64,000 nt of DNA from Futiania mangrovi (GTDB lineage: Bacteria > Pseudomonadota > Alphaproteobacteria > Futianiales > Futianiaceae): the NCBI RefSeq assembly GCF_024158125.1, contig NZ_JAMZFT010000003.1, positions 248,001-312,000 of the forward strand, read 5' to 3'. Under the pieces are notes generated by a model. It was not told where the DNA came from, did no database searches, and was given only the letters and a program-made list of their open reading frames with translations. The stretch's first letter is position 1; the number at the start of each line of letters is the position of its first letter. Positions 49,868-63,920 of the stretch are shown here, piece by piece. The position numbers were made by a program, and so were the translations under genes.

Positions 49868-50689
49868 TCACAGCCCGAACCGCGCCCAGTGCGCGCGGGC
49901 CTCCAGCGCGGAGAGGGCCTCCCCCGCCAGCCCCTCGCGCCCGGCCATGCCGAGGCGGCGGGCGAGCCACCCGGTAGGCCGCGTCGGGATCACCTTGAGC
50001 TTGAGCTTGTCCCCGTAACGCCCTCTCAGGACGCTGCGAATGTCCCCCACCCCGTCTGCGAGGCCGACGTCCACCGCCCGCTGCCCGGCCCAGATCGCGC
50101 CGGTGAAGAGATCCGGGTCTTCGTCCTTCAGCCGGTTGCCGCGCGCGGCCCTGACCACGCGCTTGAAGGTCTCGTGCACCTCCGCCTGGATCGCGAGCAG
50201 GCGGTTGACGTCCTCCTCCCGCTCGGCCTGGAAGGGGTCGAGCATCATCTTGTTCTCGCCAGCCGTATGCACGCGCCGCTCGACGCCCAGCTTCGCGATC
50301 GCGTCCTGGAAGCCGAAGCCCGCCGAGATCACGCCGATGGAGCCGACGATGGAACTTTCGTCGACGAAGATCTCGTCGCCCGCGCAGGCGATATAGTAAC
50401 CGCCCGAGGCCGCCACGTCCTCCACGAAGACGAAGACGCGCTTGCCCTTCTCGGTCTTCAGCGCCTTGATCCGCTTGTAGATCAGCGAGGATTGCACGGG
50501 CGAGCCGCCCGGCGAATTGACGATGAAGGCCACCGCGCGCGCCTGCTTCATGGCGAACGCCTTTTCGATGGCGCCCACGACCGCCTCGAAATCGAAGCCC
50601 TGCCGGAAGCGTCCGCCGGCCCCGATGGCGCCGGTCAGCCGGACCACGGGCACGAAGGGTGCGCGCGGCAGGGAAAGTCCGAAAGGCAT
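49868..50689 (-). CDS. S49 family signal peptide peptidase-like protease (SppA/SohB type)
   Basis: A 273-residue S49 protease. The Ser/Lys dyad is visible: S95 in EDVAASGGYYIACAGDEI and K147 in HTAGENKMMLDPFQ, 52 residues apart as in characterised SppA. VVRLTGAIG, FIVNSPGGSPVQSS and GSIGVISAGFGFQDAI are the family strands. It degrades cleaved signal peptides or membrane fragments. No clear N-terminal membrane helix is present from this start; GGAG nine bases before the ATG at 50687-50689 supports it. It is divergent from the six-gene paralogue array. Confidence 0.88.
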   Translation of the reverse strand: MPFGLSLPRAPFVPVVRLTGAIGAGGRFRQGFDFEAVVGAIEKAFAMKQARAVAFIVNSPGGSPVQSSLIYKRIKALKTEKGKRVFVFVEDVAASGGYYIACAGDEIFVDESSIVGSIGVISAGFGFQDAIAKLGVERRVHTAGENKMMLDPFQAEREEDVNRLLAIQAEVHETFKRVVRAARGNRLKDEDPDLFTGAIWAGQRAVDVGLADGVGDIRSVLRGRYGDKLKLKVIPTRPTGWLARRLGMAGREGLAGEALSALEARAHWARFGL

Positions 50690-50970
50690 GCGGGCACTCC
50701 ATCCATGGGACACTTGCCTGCCGGAAGGTATGGGGTGAGGTGCCCCACGGCAAGGATCGGGCTTGCCCCGCCGGTGAACTCTTGCTAGATGCCGCCCCGC
50801 ACGCCGGAGCGCCCTCGCGGCCCTCATGAACGGCCCCTTGCCCAGAGGCACTGCCCTGCCGGCCGGTTCGCGTGCGTTTCCTTGGACTTCCCGCACACAA
50901 GGACCGCTCCGGAAACGGGCCCTGCCTCTGCTGACACACGCCACTTCCAGACCAGCCGAGGAAGACATCC

Positions 50971-51498
50971 ATGACCGGCATCGCGAACGCACCTGTCTTC
51001 ACCGGCTTCGGCGATCAGGGCGGCGACGACTTCAGCCTCGACCTCGCCGGCCCCGATGCGGGCGGCGATGCGGTCGCAAGCATCGGCACAACCGATGAGG
51101 TCTGCCGCGACTTCGCTCAGGACATGTTGAAAAAATCCACGATGCTGCAGCGTCATCTGGATGCTGCTGAGCTCTATGAAAGCCAGGGGCACCCCCAGGC
51201 CGCGCGCATCGCGCTCGTCGAGGCGCGGGACCTGGCGCAAAATCTCCAGGACGACTGCAATCTCTACTTCCAGGCCTGCCGGGACAATCCCAGCGTGACG
51301 AAGGACGACCAGCTCCGCATCGCCATGATGTGCAACGCCTATTCGTCCATAGAGGCGCAGATAGACAGCAAGCTCGCAGAGCTGAACACGGGCACGCCGA
51401 TCGACCTGCGCCCGATCGGCGAGGCGCTCTGGGGGATCCTCCGGTTTGTGGGCGGCATCGGCCGCGCGCTGGGCGGCGGCGCTGCCTGGCAGAACTGA
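50971..51498 (+). CDS. Array protein 1: four-Cys helical protein, unknown function
   Basis: 175 residues, not matched to any family I know. Residues 1-40 are acidic and Gly-rich with GGDDFSLDLAGPDA at 17-30, which recurs almost exactly in array protein 2. The helical core 42-135 holds C45, C96, C103 and C121. A conserved-position segment PIDLRPIGEALW follows, then a glycine-spaced hydrophobic helix (RFVGGIGRALGGG) and the tail AAWQN. No Sec signal peptide. GAGGAAG nine bases upstream supports the ATG. The first gene of the array, divergent from the sppA-like gene 281 bp away. Export by a non-Sec route or a disulfide-linked assembly is conjecture. Confidence 0.78.
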   Translation: MTGIANAPVFTGFGDQGGDDFSLDLAGPDAGGDAVASIGTTDEVCRDFAQDMLKKSTMLQRHLDAAELYESQGHPQAARIALVEARDLAQNLQDDCNLYFQACRDNPSVTKDDQLRIAMMCNAYSSIEAQIDSKLAELNTGTPIDLRPIGEALWGILRFVGGIGRALGGGAAWQN

Positions 51499-51519
51499 CA
51501 CCGAAAGGGAACTCACTCC

Positions 51520-52164
51520 ATGACCGGCATTGCGAACGCATCCGCATTCTCAGGTTTCGACGCACCCGGCGGCGACGATTTCAGCCTCGATCTCGCCGGC
51601 CCCGATGCTGCCGGCGCCCCGGCGCCCTCTGAGCCCGAGGGCGGCACGGAGGTCGCCATCTTCCCGTGGTTCGGCAGGCGCGGTCCCGACTACCAGCGGA
51701 ACAACGGCGGCGGAAACGGCAACGACGGCGTCGGTGGACCGGGCAATCCCGGCGACGCCTGCGCCGATCTCGCCCGGCAGATGTCCATCAAGTCGAACAA
51801 CATCCTCACCTTCATCAGGCTTGCCGACCAGTATGCGAGCAATGGCCATCCGGGCCTCGCACGCGATGCGCTGATCAAGGCCAAGAACATGATCGTCGAC
51901 ATGCAGGCAGCCTGCAGCGAGTTCGCGCAGCGATGCCAGGGCTCGCCCGCCGTGCCGGAGAGCGATCAGGTCCGCCTCGGCCTCGCCTGCCGCGACCTCG
52001 CGGACGTCGAAAAGGAAATCGACAAGCGGCTCGTCTCTCTGAGCCAGGGAAATGCATTCGACCTCGGCGGCCTGGCCCAGACTGCGGGCGCCGTGTTCGG
52101 CCAGGTCCTTCAGATTCTGGGCGGGATAGGCCGCGCCCTGAGCGGCCCTCAGTGGCAGAACTAG
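51520..52164 (+). CDS. Array protein 2: four-Cys helical protein with Gly/Asn-rich insert
   Basis: 214 residues, closest to array protein 1: the first 30 residues differ at few positions (MTGIANA, GGDDFSLDLAGPDA). A 36-residue insert follows, containing IFPWFGRRGPDYQRNNGGGN and GNDGVGGPGNPG. The core has C81, C132, C139 and C157 with exactly the same spacing (50, 6, 17) as protein 1. The C-terminal region has VLQILGGIGRALSG and ends PQWQN. AAGGGAAC lies before the ATG, 21 bp after the previous stop, so genes 1 and 2 are probably co-transcribed. Function unknown. Confidence 0.78.
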   Translation: MTGIANASAFSGFDAPGGDDFSLDLAGPDAAGAPAPSEPEGGTEVAIFPWFGRRGPDYQRNNGGGNGNDGVGGPGNPGDACADLARQMSIKSNNILTFIRLADQYASNGHPGLARDALIKAKNMIVDMQAACSEFAQRCQGSPAVPESDQVRLGLACRDLADVEKEIDKRLVSLSQGNAFDLGGLAQTAGAVFGQVLQILGGIGRALSGPQWQN

Positions 52165-52192
52165 GAAGAATCCGTACCGCAATCTCAGGCTC

Positions 52193-52221
52193 TTGAAATC
52201 GCCAGTAGGTTGCGATACCAA
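52193..52221 (+). promoter_or_regulatory. Possible promoter for the second half of the array
   Basis: TTGAAA (52193-52198), 17-base spacer, TACCAA (52216-52221), in the longest gap of the array (236 bp). The -10 match is poor. It would explain separate expression of genes 3-6. Confidence 0.25.
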
Positions 52222-52400
52222 CCCGGCACGCACCGGGAGGCTGCGCTCCGCACCCTCCATGAACGGTCCTTGCCGCCGCCGTCGATGACGGCCGAAGGTT
52301 CCCCGGTGCGCCCTCCCCCGATGCGATGGATGGCACCGCGCTGCCTGACGGCCGGATTGGCATGGAAAACCATCCGCAGACCTGGGGCACCAGCACAGTC

Positions 52401-52958
52401 ATGTTTCTCGACCCGCTTTCCCGACAGGGCGCAGGCGTCCCGTTCGACGACGCTTTTCCGGTGATCGCGCCCCCCGCCGCCGGCCAGGAAACGCCTCCCT
52501 CCGCCTCCCTCGTCGCGAATGTCGCACCCTCATCCGTGACCAGCGCCTGCAACGACCTGATGTCCTCGATCCTGCAGTATGCGGGTCTGATGGGCTCGGC
52601 CCAGGAGCGCCTGAACGACGCCCGCCAGGGCGGCCGCACCGCCGACATGCGGGAGATCCTGCGCCAGATCGTCCAGCTTGCCGCCGCAGCAAGCGAGCTG
52701 TGCGACCGCTTCCGGAACGACTGCGCATTCGAGAGCGAGGTTCCGATGTACCTCCAGATCAAGGTCACCGCCCTTTGCCGGAAGCTCGAACAGATCGGCG
52801 ACGCCGCCGAGGAAGGCCTCGCCGCGCTGGGCCGTCCCGGGCTTCAGATCGACCTCGGCGAAATCGGCGACCTGCTCGGCGGTGGCGTGGACCTGCTCAT
52901 GGCCCTCTTCAGCGGACTTGCCGCCTTCCTCGGCGGCCAGCGCCAGGGCGCATTCTGA
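52401..52958 (+). CDS. Array protein 3: four-Cys helical protein, QRQGAF tail
   Basis: 185 residues from the ATG at 52401, a start chosen because it puts the Asp-Phe motif (FDDAF, 15-19) and the first Cys (C50) where the paralogues have them; ATGs at 52362 and 52326 would give longer, unmatched N-termini, and none has a good ribosome site. SLVANVAPSSVTSAC matches the ANVAPED motif before C51 in protein 6. Cysteines at 50, 101, 108 and 126 (spacing 50, 6, 17). C-terminal GGGVDLLMALFSGLAAFLGG looks membrane-active and ends QRQGAF, identical to protein 6. Function unknown. Confidence 0.72.
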   Translation: MFLDPLSRQGAGVPFDDAFPVIAPPAAGQETPPSASLVANVAPSSVTSACNDLMSSILQYAGLMGSAQERLNDARQGGRTADMREILRQIVQLAAAASELCDRFRNDCAFESEVPMYLQIKVTALCRKLEQIGDAAEEGLAALGRPGLQIDLGEIGDLLGGGVDLLMALFSGLAAFLGGQRQGAF

Positions 52959-52982
52959 CCATCCAACACTGCGAGAAGAAAG

Positions 52983-53558
52983 ATGACGACCACCGACCTC
53001 TCCACGGCTTCGCTCCCTTACCTGCCGGAAGACGTGAACGGCGACGATTTCGCCGCCGCCTTCGCGGCCGCGCCCGCGGGCGGGCCGGACCTGATCGCCA
53101 ACGCGGACGAAGAAGACGTCTTCTGCCGCAGCCAGCTCGACTACATCAAGGACCTCTCGTTCCGCATGAACCTCTCCATGGGCCTTGCGGAGAGCGCCAA
53201 GGCGGACGGCGACAAGACCGCGCTACGCAACGCGCTGCTCAGCGTCCGCACCCTCGCCGCTCTGGCCTCCGACGCGTGCCAGGCCTTCGAGGCGATTTGT
53301 AGCGGCCCGTACTCCGACCTGACGGACGAAGAACGCCGGGAGGCCATCCGGCTTTGTAACGACGTCTACCAGACGGAGCGCATGGCGGACCGGATGCTGT
53401 TCCAGCTGGAACAGGAGGGGCCCCGCGGCGTCAATCTGGAGCCCATGGTAGGGCTTCTCTCAAACATCGGGGACGGGCTGAAGCAGGTTGGAACCGCGCT
53501 CGGCATGGGCGCGCTCTGGTTCCTTCAGCAGGTCTTCCGCCGCCCGGGTGCCGTCTGA
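52983..53558 (+). CDS. Array protein 4: four-Cys helical protein, RRPGAV tail
   Basis: 191 residues. NGDDFAAAFAAAPAGG (19-34) is the Asp-Phe region and DLIANADEEDVFC leads to C48; C99, C106 and C125 follow (spacing 50, 6, 18). The core helices are charged and amphipathic (ERREAIRLCNDVYQTERMAD). The segment GVNLEPMVGLLSNIGDGLKQ precedes a short hydrophobic stretch (GTALGMGALWFLQQVF) and the tail RRPGAV, both nearly the same as in protein 5. GAGAAGAAAG lies directly before the ATG. No export signal recognised; function unknown. Confidence 0.77.
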   Translation: MTTTDLSTASLPYLPEDVNGDDFAAAFAAAPAGGPDLIANADEEDVFCRSQLDYIKDLSFRMNLSMGLAESAKADGDKTALRNALLSVRTLAALASDACQAFEAICSGPYSDLTDEERREAIRLCNDVYQTERMADRMLFQLEQEGPRGVNLEPMVGLLSNIGDGLKQVGTALGMGALWFLQQVFRRPGAV

Positions 53559-53639
53559 CCTGCCCCATGGGCAACCCGGCTGCGGCTGCGACCCCTTCTT
53601 CCCCAACCCTCTCATCGCATCGCAGAAGGTTCTTCGACC

Positions 53640-54209
53640 ATGACCGTTACGGATTTCGCTTCCTCCGCTTCCTGGGGCTACACCCAGAACGTCGACCCGT
53701 TGCCCGGCGACTTCTCTGCCGCCTATCCCGCCCCGGCATCCGCCACCGTGATCGCCGCAGAGGATCCCAGTCTCTGCCAGATGCAGCTCGAAATGCTCGA
53801 GCGGCAGATGGGCCATATCGCCTCCGAGATGGCGTCGGTACGCGCCGCCCAAAGGAATGGGGACGATGATGCGCTCCGCATGCACCTGAACAACGTGCGC
53901 GGACTCGCCAGTGCGGCGTCCAATACCTGCTACGCGTTCGAGGCAATGTGCTCCGACCCATCGTCAGGCTTGTCCGAGCAGGAGATCCAAAAGGCGAAGC
54001 TCCTCTGCGACCAGATCGAGCGACTCGGGCAACGGGCCGACCGGTTGCTCATGGAGCTCGACCAGAAGGGCGCGAACGGCATCGACCTGCAACCAATGAT
54101 GAACCTGCTTTCGAACATTGCCGACGGGATCGGCGGGCTCCTTGCAGCCTTTGGCGGTGCGCTCGGCTGGTTCCTTCAGCAGCTCTTCCGCCGCCCGGGC
54201 GCGGTCTGA
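53640..54209 (+). CDS. Array protein 5: four-Cys helical protein, RRPGAV tail
   Basis: 189 residues, sister of protein 4. N-terminus MTVTDFASSASWGY, the PGDFSAAYPAPAS motif at 22-34, and TVIAAEDPSLC before C46; then C97, C104 and C123 (50, 6, 18). CYAFEAMCSD parallels CQAFEAICSG of protein 4. After GIDLQPMMNLLSNIADGIGG comes the hydrophobic GGLLAAFGGALGWFLQQLF and RRPGAV. AGAAGG lies about ten bases before the ATG; an 81-bp gap with no obvious promoter precedes it. Function unknown. Confidence 0.77.
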   Translation: MTVTDFASSASWGYTQNVDPLPGDFSAAYPAPASATVIAAEDPSLCQMQLEMLERQMGHIASEMASVRAAQRNGDDDALRMHLNNVRGLASAASNTCYAFEAMCSDPSSGLSEQEIQKAKLLCDQIERLGQRADRLLMELDQKGANGIDLQPMMNLLSNIADGIGGLLAAFGGALGWFLQQLFRRPGAV

Positions 54210-54279
54210 CCTCTTTACCCCAAGGGACGGCGGGGCAGCCTGCCGTCCATCCACTCGAGAAACCGGAGGAAACGAAACG

Positions 54280-54834
54280 ATGCTCGAAGGTGCCTACAGC
54301 TCCGTTCCCGCAGATGCCGGCAATACTTATCCGCAGGACTTCGCTCTTCCCACGGACGCCCCCGCGACCGCCGGGGCCGAACCGGCCGTGATCGCGAACG
54401 TCGCGCCCGAGGATCCCGCGGTGAAGGCCTGCCTCGACGACATCACCGCCCTGCGCAACATCAAGGTGCGCATGGACCGCCTGGCCGAGGAAATCGCGAT
54501 CGCAGATCCCAACGAAACGCGCTACGTCAACAACCTGCTGAACGGCATCCAGCGGGAGGCTGCGGAAGCCGAGAAGATCTGCGCCCGTATCGAGCGGAAT
54601 TGCGCCAACCTCGGCATCGCCCCTTCGCAGCTGGGTAACGTGCACCATCTCTGCGACCAGATCCGCACCGTCGCCCGCGCTGCGCAGGAGCAGCAGGATG
54701 CCATGAACAAGGGGCTGAACTTCGACCTCGGCGCCGTCACGGACGCCATCGGGCAGTTCGGCGGCGCGGTCTGGGGGGTGGTCCTGATGATCCTGGGCTT
54801 CCTGTTTGGCGGCCAGCGCCAGGGCGCGTTCTAG
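54280..54834 (+). CDS. Array protein 6: four-Cys helical protein, QRQGAF tail
   Basis: 184 residues. YPQDFALPTDAPATAG (17-32) carries the Asp-Phe motif and AVIANVAPEDPAVKAC precedes C51; C101, C108 and C125 follow (spacing 49, 6, 16, the most diverged member). The C-terminal FGGAVWGVVLMILGFLFGG is the most convincing membrane helix of the set and ends QRQGAF like protein 3. A strong GGAGGAAACGAAACG ribosome site decides the ATG. Its stop overlaps the convergent methyltransferase gene by four bases. Function unknown. Confidence 0.77.
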   Translation: MLEGAYSSVPADAGNTYPQDFALPTDAPATAGAEPAVIANVAPEDPAVKACLDDITALRNIKVRMDRLAEEIAIADPNETRYVNNLLNGIQREAAEAEKICARIERNCANLGIAPSQLGNVHHLCDQIRTVARAAQEQQDAMNKGLNFDLGAVTDAIGQFGGAVWGVVLMILGFLFGGQRQGAF

Positions 54835-55601
54835 AGCGCCAGCGCACGCCCCTCGCGCAGCACCTCCTCCGCGGCCGCCGTGTAGCGTTCCGGGCGGTCG
54901 TGGAGGACGAGGCCCGGCAACAGCCGCAAGGGCGTGCGCACGCCCTTGCGTGCCCGCACGATGACGCGCTTGGCGGGCTGGTCCGCGGCGGGCCACAGCG
55001 GAAAGACGGCTATGCCGCCGAAGCCGGGGGTAATCGCCGCCAGCGCCTCGTCCAGCCGCTCCGCCCTCAGAATCACGGTCAGGCGCCCGCGCGGGCGGAC
55101 GAAACGGGCGGCACGCGCGATCCATCCGCCCATGCCGAGCGGCCCGTCGCTGCGGGCACGCGCACGGACAGGGTCGGGCGCTGAGGGCCCCTTCGCCGGG
55201 TCGAAGAAGGGCGGGTTCGTCATCACCTCGTCGAAGGCGTTGGGCGCGATGCCGCCCGCATCCTCGCCGAGGTCGCCGCACAGCGCGGTCATGCGTGCGG
55301 CCCATCCGTTCGCCGCCGCGTTCTCATCGGCGAGGGCTGCCAGCGCCGGCTCGATCTCCAGCCCCGTGACGGACAGGCCTTCCGCGCCGGCATCCCGGGC
55401 GCGCGCCAGCAGCGCAAGCCCCGCCGTGCCCACGCCGCAGCCGGCGTCGAGAACCCGCATGGCTCTGCCAGCCTCCGGCAGAGGCACGGCGGCCGCAAGC
55501 AGCAGCGCGTCGCTGCCCGCCCGCAAGCCCCCGCGCGGCTGGCGCAGGCGCACGCGCCCGCCCATCAGCAGATCCTCGGTCAGGTCAGGCGCCGCTGTCA
55601 C
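54831..55601 (-). CDS. tRNA1(Val) adenine-N6 methyltransferase-like protein (TrmN6 type)
   Basis: A 256-residue class I methyltransferase. SAM motif I is VLDAGCGVGTAGLALLAR, and the catalytic NPPF motif lies in VMTNPPFFDPA; GSDALLLAAAVP near the N-terminus is the typical 'xGxDALLL' entry of TrmN6/YfiC enzymes, which methylate A37 of tRNA1(Val). Starts with GTG at 55599-55601, overlapping the 3' end of the DUF2007 gene by 17 bp, so translation is likely coupled. Confidence 0.82.
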   Translation of the reverse strand: MTAAPDLTEDLLMGGRVRLRQPRGGLRAGSDALLLAAAVPLPEAGRAMRVLDAGCGVGTAGLALLARARDAGAEGLSVTGLEIEPALAALADENAAANGWAARMTALCGDLGEDAGGIAPNAFDEVMTNPPFFDPAKGPSAPDPVRARARSDGPLGMGGWIARAARFVRPRGRLTVILRAERLDEALAAITPGFGGIAVFPLWPAADQPAKRVIVRARKGVRTPLRLLPGLVLHDRPERYTAAAEEVLREGRALAL

Positions 55602-63050: not shown

Positions 63051-63920
63051 ATGGAAAGCCAGATCCTATCGTCCGGAATCGACACAAAGTACCAGGAGAT
63101 TGCCGGGGACGACGGCAAGATGACCTTCTGGGAGTTTGCAGACGCAGTCCGCAACGACGACAAGCTTCTGAAGCAGTTCGACAAGAACGGCGACGGGCGC
63201 CTCGGTTGCTGCGAGACGGTGAAGCTCTATTGGGACGTCATGAAGGGCTGCAAGATCGACGAGGACCGCGTGCGCGAGGTCCTCGGCGAGGCCGGCTACG
63301 GCGAAATGGACGAGGTTGGCGAGCAGTGCTGCCCCCCGTCTCCCTGCTCCTGCAACTGCGCCGGCGAAACGGACGGCGCCGAAGGGGCTGACGGCGCCGA
63401 CGACAGCGACATGACCCTCGGCGGCAATGCCCCGGCGACGGGGACCGGCGCAACCGGTGCAACCGGCGCAACTGGTGCCGACGACGGATGCTGCGCATGC
63501 GATGACGGCACCGAGGGCGCATCTCCCGACCGCGCCGCCGTCCTGGACGACGTGCTCGACCACCTGTCCGACGACGACCAGGTCTCCTTCGCCGAATTCC
63601 AGGGCCTCTACGGCAAGCATGGCGATGGCTCCATGTCCGCCGAAGACCTGCGGGACGCCTACAACGGTCTCGACAGCTTCGATGCGGAAAGCGTGACAGA
63701 TGGCCTGATGCATGCGTTCGGCGCAGGCACGTCCCTGTTGGACGACCTGCTCGATATGCTGGCCTACGACGGGCAGATCACGTTCGCGGAGTTCAAGGCG
63801 CTGATCGCCAAGCATGGCGGGTCGGACATGAGCGATGCGGAGCTGCGCGACCTCTACCGCAACGCCAACAGCTTCGACGCCGCAAGCATGCAGACGGCGG
63901 CCGACAGCGCGCTTGCCTGA
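63051..63920 (+). CDS. Cys-rich EF-hand-like protein with collagen-like stretch
   Basis: A 289-residue acidic protein. One canonical calcium loop, DKNGDGRLGCCE (44-55), has all six ligand positions. Degenerate EF motifs flank it (GDDGKMTFWEF near 19, SDDDQVSFAEF, LAYDGQITFAEF), giving two lobes. Between them lie Cys clusters (CCPPSPCSCNC and CCACDD) and a Gly-x-Thr tract GTGATGATGATGA. There is no signal peptide. Calcium or other metal binding and disulfide or metal clustering are plausible; I know no characterised homologue. It stands alone with its own promoter candidate and a strong terminator. Confidence 0.8.
   Translation: MESQILSSGIDTKYQEIAGDDGKMTFWEFADAVRNDDKLLKQFDKNGDGRLGCCETVKLYWDVMKGCKIDEDRVREVLGEAGYGEMDEVGEQCCPPSPCSCNCAGETDGAEGADGADDSDMTLGGNAPATGTGATGATGATGADDGCCACDDGTEGASPDRAAVLDDVLDHLSDDDQVSFAEFQGLYGKHGDGSMSAEDLRDAYNGLDSFDAESVTDGLMHAFGAGTSLLDDLLDMLAYDGQITFAEFKALIAKHGGSDMSDAELRDLYRNANSFDAASMQTAADSALA

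What the first reader, a model, noticed from the sequence alone, without database searches (positions are those of the whole stretch)
50971..54834. Six-gene tandem array of an unrecognised four-cysteine protein family
Seen directly: six consecutive genes encode 175-214 residue proteins with C-x(49-50)-C-x6-C-x(16-18)-C; the x6 is invariant in all six and the first three proteins have identical 50/6/17 spacing although the intervening residues differ widely. Each has an Asp-Phe motif near residue 20, no Sec signal, and a Gly-rich hydrophobic C-terminus. Tails come in three matched pairs (WQN, QRQGAF, RRPGAV). Cys1 at the start of one helix and Cys2/3 at the end of the next would meet in an antiparallel hairpin, so disulfides or a metal site are likely. 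The paired tails and N-terminal motifs suggest a family of exported or self-assembling subunits under diversifying duplication: surface layer, toxin or pore-forming set, or a compartment. I know no described system with this layout.
Basis: partly seen in the sequence, partly recalled or inferred. Interest (0 to 1): 0.88.

Follow-up and report, generated by a model that had tools for sequence, protein, structure and literature searches.

The report
Orphan four-cysteine tandem gene family
The marine bacterium Futiania mangrovi carries eight copies (six side by side) of a gene family so far found nowhere else, whose small proteins have a loose front end, a three-helix middle probably held by disulfide bonds and a membrane-seeking tail; what they do is unknown, but they look like parts exported without the usual signal.

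Summary
Six real genes (window 50971-54834) encode 175-214 aa proteins whose only cysteines sit at C-x49-50-C-x6-C-x16-18-C. The genome is Futiania mangrovi FT118. A profile finds two more paralogs on another contig. They share the fold and the RQGAF tail but keep only Cys1 and Cys3, so the four-cysteine pattern marks the array, not the family. Nothing related was found in Pfam, NCBIfam, PHROGs, PADLOC, PDB sequences, 384 other alphaproteobacterial genomes, GTDB contig scans, viral contigs, or (tblastn, some members) plasmids and phages. The array is a 4.1-kb insertion between two genes that are near neighbours in other Alphaproteobacteria.

AlphaFold2 gives a confident but generic antiparallel three-helix bundle after a disordered acidic leader and before a low-confidence Gly-rich helix. 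Helix register and the joint loss of Cys2 and Cys4 both suggest two disulfides (C1-C3, C2-C4) rather than a four-ligand metal site. The ends are conserved; the core has diverged to 25-38% identity.

My leading but weakly supported reading is leaderless exported, membrane-associating subunits. The genome lacks T6SS and C39 transporters but has an undescribed rhizobial-type (Rhc) type III secretion cluster, the best candidate route. Linkage is absent and function is untested.

The parts
50971..51498 (+). Gene 1, 175 aa, Cys 45/96/103/121, tail ...AAWQN
51520..52164 (+). Gene 2, 214 aa, Cys 81/132/139/157, tail ...PQWQN; first 100 nt (from -3) 83% identical to gene 1
52362..52958 (+). Gene 3, about 198 aa (start uncertain: 52326, 52362 or 52401), Cys 63/114/121/139 counted from 52362, tail ...QRQGAF
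52983..53558 (+). Gene 4, 191 aa, Cys 48/99/106/125, tail ...RRPGAV
53640..54209 (+). Gene 5, 189 aa, Cys 46/97/104/123, tail ...RRPGAV; AlphaFold2 model: helices 43-73, 76-104, 113-146 (core, pLDDT over 90 for most of it) and 151-183 (low confidence)
54280..54834 (+). Gene 6, 184 aa, Cys 51/101/108/125, tail ...QRQGAF, most membrane-like tail
50690..54830 (.). Extent of the lineage-specific insertion: from just upstream of the S49 peptidase start (50689, - strand) to the 3' end of the methyltransferase gene (54831, - strand); in other Alphaproteobacteria where both were seen, the S49 match begins within about 60-600 bp of the methyltransferase
49868..50689 (-). Flanking S49-family peptidase gene of the conserved block (not part of the array)
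54831..55601 (-). Flanking methyltransferase gene of the conserved block (not part of the array)

Best explanation
A lineage-restricted paralogous family, eight genes in Futiania mangrovi, of leaderless, membrane-associating structural or secreted subunits. Each protein has three modules. First, a disordered acidic leader of 40-80 residues with almost no Lys or Arg. Second, an antiparallel three-helix bundle stapled by two disulfides (C1-C3 and C2-C4; only C1-C3 in the C2-locus pair). Third, a Gly-rich hydrophobic helix with a short conserved end (RQGAF, RRPGAV or WQN) that binds or inserts into a membrane or packs against other subunits. The proteins leave the cytoplasm without a Sec or Tat signal, fold and oxidise outside, and act at a membrane or as a surface assembly. 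The conserved ends serve export and assembly, while the middle diversifies by tandem duplication. The most economical route in this genome is its Rhc-type (rhizobial-like) type III secretion apparatus. Shown: the genes, their homology, the modular conservation, the predicted fold, the absence of a Sec-like N-terminus, and the presence of the T3SS cluster. Inferred: disulfides, export, membrane insertion, and the link to the T3SS.
For: Homology of all eight. AlphaFold2 core pLDDT over 90 for most of residues 43-140 of gene 5, and the same three helices in the C2-locus paralog. Hairpin register: in an antiparallel hairpin with a turn at 74-75, residue 46 faces about 103-104 (C1-C3). With a turn near 105-112, residue 97 faces about 120-123 (C2-C4). 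Independently, the C2-locus pair lost exactly C2 and C4 and kept C1-x57-C3. N-terminal residues 2-31: 0% Lys, 0.4% Arg, 14% Asp+Glu, no hydrophobic core of Sec type. Tails are hydrophobic (Eisenberg mean 0.67-0.88 in five of eight; amphipathic in gene 1) and 17-31% Gly. The ends are mostly more conserved than the structured core in four paralog pairs (core 25-38% aa identity; N-terminal 39-64%; last 15 residues 64-87%). Identical residues also share codons more often in the ends (63% vs 49%, Fisher p = 0.019). Export candidates in the genome: an Rhc-type T3SS at C2:711-725 kb (SctV and SctJ over NCBIfam cut-offs; gene order as in rhizobia). No C39 peptidase transporter and no T6SS sheath.
Against: No gene of the family lies near the T3SS cluster, which is on another contig or about 185 kb away. 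No chaperone gene adjoins the array. No upstream element shared with T3SS genes was convincing. N-termini mostly break the Pseudomonas-type T3 signal rules (acidic residues within the first 12 in six of eight; low Ser). Of the 15 genomes with a SctJ match in the class sample, only this one has the family. The T3SS may be incomplete: only the short secretin part SctC1 is present, and the two full secretins found belong to T2SS and Tad. Disulfides are inferred from geometry and one loss event; the chance of agreement with the geometric pairing is about one in three. T1SS and T4SS were not examined.
Confidence: 0.3

Rival explanations
1. Cytoplasmic proteins that attach to the inner face of a membrane, or to a lipid-like granule, through the C-terminal helix (tail anchor or phasin-like), with reduced cysteines. 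The three-helix core is a partner-binding or scaffold domain and the acidic leader is a flexible linker.
For: No signal peptide; hydrophobic or amphipathic C-terminal helix; generic helical bundle; net negative charge. This needs no export machinery and no linkage to one.
Against: Cysteines are the only invariant features of the core and are lost as a pair, which fits disulfides better than free thiols. No phasin or other granule family matches. Strict conservation of the last residues is not expected of a simple tail anchor.
Confidence: 0.3
2. Contact-dependent or bacteriocin-like toxins resembling Cdz proteins (Caulobacter): leaderless, Gly-rich hydrophobic, membrane-disrupting, diversified in tandem.
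For: Gly-rich hydrophobic tails, leader-like N-termini, tandem paralogs with diversified middles; Cdz occurs in Alphaproteobacteria (PMC5380434).
Against: The genome has no C39-peptidase transporter although Caulobacter does. GxxxG patterns are not above composition-matched shuffles. No small immunity-like gene or T1SS was called beside either locus. Cdz proteins are small and 75% Gly plus small hydrophobic residues, unlike these.
Confidence: 0.1
3. Metal- or cluster-binding proteins: the four cysteines gather at one end of the bundle and bind Zn or an Fe-S cluster.
For: The four cysteines are predicted to lie towards one end of the three-helix bundle.
Against: Two paralogs with the same fold and tail keep only C1 and C3 at unchanged spacing. 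No known metal-binding family matches.
Confidence: 0.1

Closest known systems
Antiparallel three-helix bundles (MIT, BAG, PTS IIA-lactose type, de novo designs)
   Same: Same overall arrangement of three long helices (best VIA Z 13.9, rmsd 2.0 A over 98 residues, to a de novo design; MIT of spartin Z 12.4)
   Different: Sequence identity 6-18% among the best rows, Foldseek E above 0.04. This is a common arrangement; none listed is known to me to combine a disordered leader and a Gly-rich tail with these cysteines
Cdz contact-dependent glycine-zipper proteins (Caulobacter; PMC5380434)
   Same: Leader plus Gly-rich hydrophobic segment; small secreted proteins of an alphaproteobacterium
   Different: No C39 transporter in this genome, no excess of GxxxG, a large helical cysteine domain, no immunity gene seen
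Substrates of Rhc-type type III secretion systems (Nops of rhizobia)
   Same: Leaderless, with a disordered N-terminus, in a genome with an Rhc-type T3SS
   Different: No sequence relation seen in six T3SS neighbourhoods of other genomes, no linkage, atypical N-terminal composition
Lineage-restricted (ORFan) tandem paralog families
   Same: Present in one genome only among those searched; inserted into a conserved gene block; diversified by duplication
   Different: Unusual in that the ends rather than the folded core are the conserved parts, with a fixed cysteine frame

Membership tests
Sec- or Tat-exported proteins | N-terminal basic residues followed by a hydrophobic stretch (plus twin-Arg for Tat) | tested here: not met
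   Residues 2-31 of the eight hold no Lys and one Arg in all; best 15-residue mean Kyte-Doolittle value near the N-terminus is 0.5-1.4
Type III secretion substrates | Genome encodes a non-flagellar T3SS | tested here: met
   C2:711-725 kb; SctV 795 bits (cut-off 692), SctJ 230 bits (cut-off 162), SctU/SctN best to T3SS models, SctC N-terminal part
Type III secretion substrates | N-terminal signal by the Pseudomonas rules (aliphatic at 3 or 4, no acidic residue in the first 12, Ser-rich); rules recalled from general knowledge | tested here: not met
   By reading the sequences: aliphatic at 3/4 in five of eight, no acidic residue in the first 12 in only two of eight; Ser 6% over residues 2-31
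Type III secretion substrates | Gene linked to T3SS, to its chaperones or to a shared promoter element | tested here: not met
   Array on C3, paralogs 185 kb from the cluster; no convincing shared upstream motif
Type III secretion substrates | T3SS-dependent secretion | not testable with these tools
   Needs a secretome of wild type against a mutant lacking sctN or sctV
Cdz bacteriocins | C39-peptidase ABC transporter (PCAT) and T1SS partner | tested here: not met
   PF03412 has no match in the genome; positive in 8 of 14 control genomes including Caulobacter
Cdz bacteriocins | Extended glycine zipper GxxxGxxxG | tested here: not met
   GxxxG counts equal to composition-preserving shuffles in seven of eight tails; gene 6 is borderline (39 of 500 shuffles reach it)
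Phasins and other Pfam/NCBIfam/PHROGs/PADLOC families | Match to a family model | tested here: not met
   No match under about E 0.02 for any array protein (best NCBIfam 0.02 and Pfam 0.09, far below curated cut-offs), none in PADLOC, none over cut-off for the C2-locus pair
Four-Cys metal site | All four cysteines retained in homologs | tested here: not met
   C2-locus paralogs keep C1 and C3 only
MIT/BAG-like three-helix domains | Fold plus family sequence motifs | tested here: inconclusive
   Fold resemblance at the level of common bundles (Z up to 12-13, low identity); no sequence match

The most novel reading that the evidence does not exclude
The family is a set of disulfide-stapled, tail-inserting subunits exported by the leaderless Rhc-type T3SS (which here lacks a canonical full secretin and any recognised translocator), forming a lineage-specific translocon, surface appendage or effector set with interchangeable, diversified cores and conserved export and assembly ends.
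Probability: 0.12. Interest if true: 0.75.

Novelty: new variant of a known kind. Interest (0 to 1): 0.42.

Why it matters
If the proteins are exported, they would be a protein class with an unusual conservation pattern (fixed ends and cysteine frame, free middle) in the only cultured member of an alphaproteobacterial order. They would also give a substrate handle on a type III secretion cluster that is not mentioned in the strain's description. If they are cytoplasmic, they are an example of how a lineage-specific family arises, inserts into a conserved housekeeping block and diversifies.

Tried and rejected
Pfam, NCBIfam, PHROGs and PADLOC scans gave nothing. PDB profile search hit only designed or generic helical bundles (the best, 8fbj E 3e-7, is a designed repeat protein, taken as helix composition bias). 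Relatives search: one hit at E 8e-4 in a 1-Mb genome (G055) is a low-complexity Gly/Thr/Ser-rich protein and is rejected. Scans of 385 class genomes including this one, of GTDB contigs (A3, A4), viral contigs, and tblastn of plasmids (genes 2, 5 and C2b) and phages (gene 4 and C2a) found nothing. An alignment of all six was too divergent for a pattern scan. Genome-wide search for the exact tail codons found only family members: RQGAF four, RRPGAV two, so the tails are not a shared sorting signal. Glycine zipper rejected by shuffles. Sigma-70 promoters and terminators not above chance. Rfam none. Shared promoter element with T3SS not convincing. Foldseek PDB and viral libraries: no E below 0.001. 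NolX/HrpF translocator search: no match, but the control was uninformative too. Profile search of six T3SS neighbourhoods from other Alphaproteobacteria: nothing above chance.
Full report
What is there. The six genes lie at window 50971-54834, all on the + strand. They show the codon-position GC pattern of real genes in this high-GC genome, while the three overlapping frames that I checked do not. All but gene 3 have Shine-Dalgarno-like sequences. Cysteines occur only at the four shared positions, with spacings 50/6/17 (three genes), 50/6/18 (two) and 49/6/16 (one). They remain aligned when hidden from the aligner, apart from a 3-column local shift at C1-C3 in genes 4 and 5. The match is not chance: with one protein as query, three of the other five array genes are found in the genome at E 3e-37 to 2e-6, and the paired genes are 41-45% identical.

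Organism. Contig C2 is 1,219,768 bp long, exactly the N50 published for Futiania mangrovi FT118, the only cultured member of Futianiales (PMC9927469; taxonomy). The tool found no genome of the same order, family or genus in its holdings.

More members. The profile finds two further genes at C2:525959-526513 and 526607-527206. They lie between a Sir2-like gene and a gene that looks like 2'-5' RNA ligase (named from sequence, not tested). They have the same leader, three-helix core and RQGAF tail but only C1 and C3, spaced by 57 residues as in five of the six array proteins and as C1-x50-C2-x6-C3 predicts. Exact tail codons occur nowhere else in the genome.

Distribution. No relative was found in 384 other alphaproteobacterial genomes, in two GTDB contig scans (these need a short conserved peptide and confirm by tblastn, so they reach only fairly close relatives), in viral contigs, or in plasmids and phages for the members tried. 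Using the flanking methyltransferase as anchor, other Alphaproteobacteria have the S49 peptidase gene right next to it, so the array is an insertion of about 4.1 kb into a conserved block.

Anatomy. AlphaFold2 on the eight-member alignment gives helices 43-73, 76-104 and 113-146 with pLDDT mostly above 90, an N-terminus of about 40 residues with pLDDT below 50, and a C-terminal helix 151-183 at about 50-60. The paralog from C2 gives the same layout. The fold is a common three-helix bundle; its best matches are designed proteins, MIT and BAG domains with low identity, which says nothing about function. Tails are Gly-rich and vary from amphipathic (gene 1) to transmembrane-like (gene 6).

Cysteines. 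Simple hairpin geometry puts C1 opposite C3, and C2 close to C4. The C2-locus pair has lost exactly C2 and C4. Both lines point to disulfides C1-C3 and C2-C4.

Modular conservation. In all four closest pairs the last 15 residues (64-87% identity) and the N-terminal parts (39-64%) are more conserved than the core (25-38%). Codon identity at identical residues is also higher in the ends (63% vs 49%, p = 0.019 on pooled counts that are not fully independent). Genes 1 and 2 share 83% of their first 100 nt, genes 4 and 5 93% of their last 46 nt, and genes 3 and 6 96% of the last 23 nt before the stop codon. Occasional exchange between copies, or selection on the ends, would explain this.

Function. 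No Sec or Tat signal is present. The genome has no T6SS sheath gene and no C39-peptidase transporter. It does have a non-flagellar T3SS at C2:711-725 kb: a 73-aa NopA-sized protein, SctD, a SctY-like TPR protein, SctV, then on the other strand SctU,T,S,R,Q,O,N,L,K,J, a NopB-sized protein and a short SctC. This is the gene order of rhizobial Rhc-I clusters with the split secretin. The second secretin half was not found; the two full secretins lie in T2SS-like and Tad-like clusters, as judged from neighbouring sequences, so the system may resemble the Rhizobium etli type that lacks rhcC2. A leaderless family with disordered ends fits such a route. However, there is no linkage, no shared promoter element, and the N-termini are not typical. 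I therefore commit to exported membrane-associating subunits at 0.3, with a cytoplasmic membrane-attached role as an equally likely rival.

Novelty. The family is not in any library searched, but lineage-restricted paralog families are a known phenomenon and the fold is generic. I call it a new variant of a known kind.

Noticed in passing
L048:1197-15049 (G000:C2:711196-725048): A non-flagellar type III secretion cluster of rhizobial Rhc-I-like order with only the short secretin part SctC1; a text search of the strain description found no mention of secretion.
   Followed up: partly
G000:C2:725.8-758 kb (L048-L050): A large flagellar gene cluster (FlhA-, FlhB-, FliR-, FliQ-, FliC-like, hooks and rods) although the species description lists the strain as motile but without flagella.
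   Followed up: no
window 50968-51067 and 51517-51616; 53516-53561 and 54167-54212: Ends of paired genes are far more alike at DNA level (83% and 93%) than their middles, suggesting local exchange between copies.
   Followed up: partly
L048:2644-2991 (C2:712643-712990): 115-aa protein without family match between SctD and the TPR protein of the T3SS cluster.
   Followed up: no
window 63051-63920: 289-aa predicted protein whose start resembles an EF-hand-like calcium-binding sequence; not examined.
   Followed up: no
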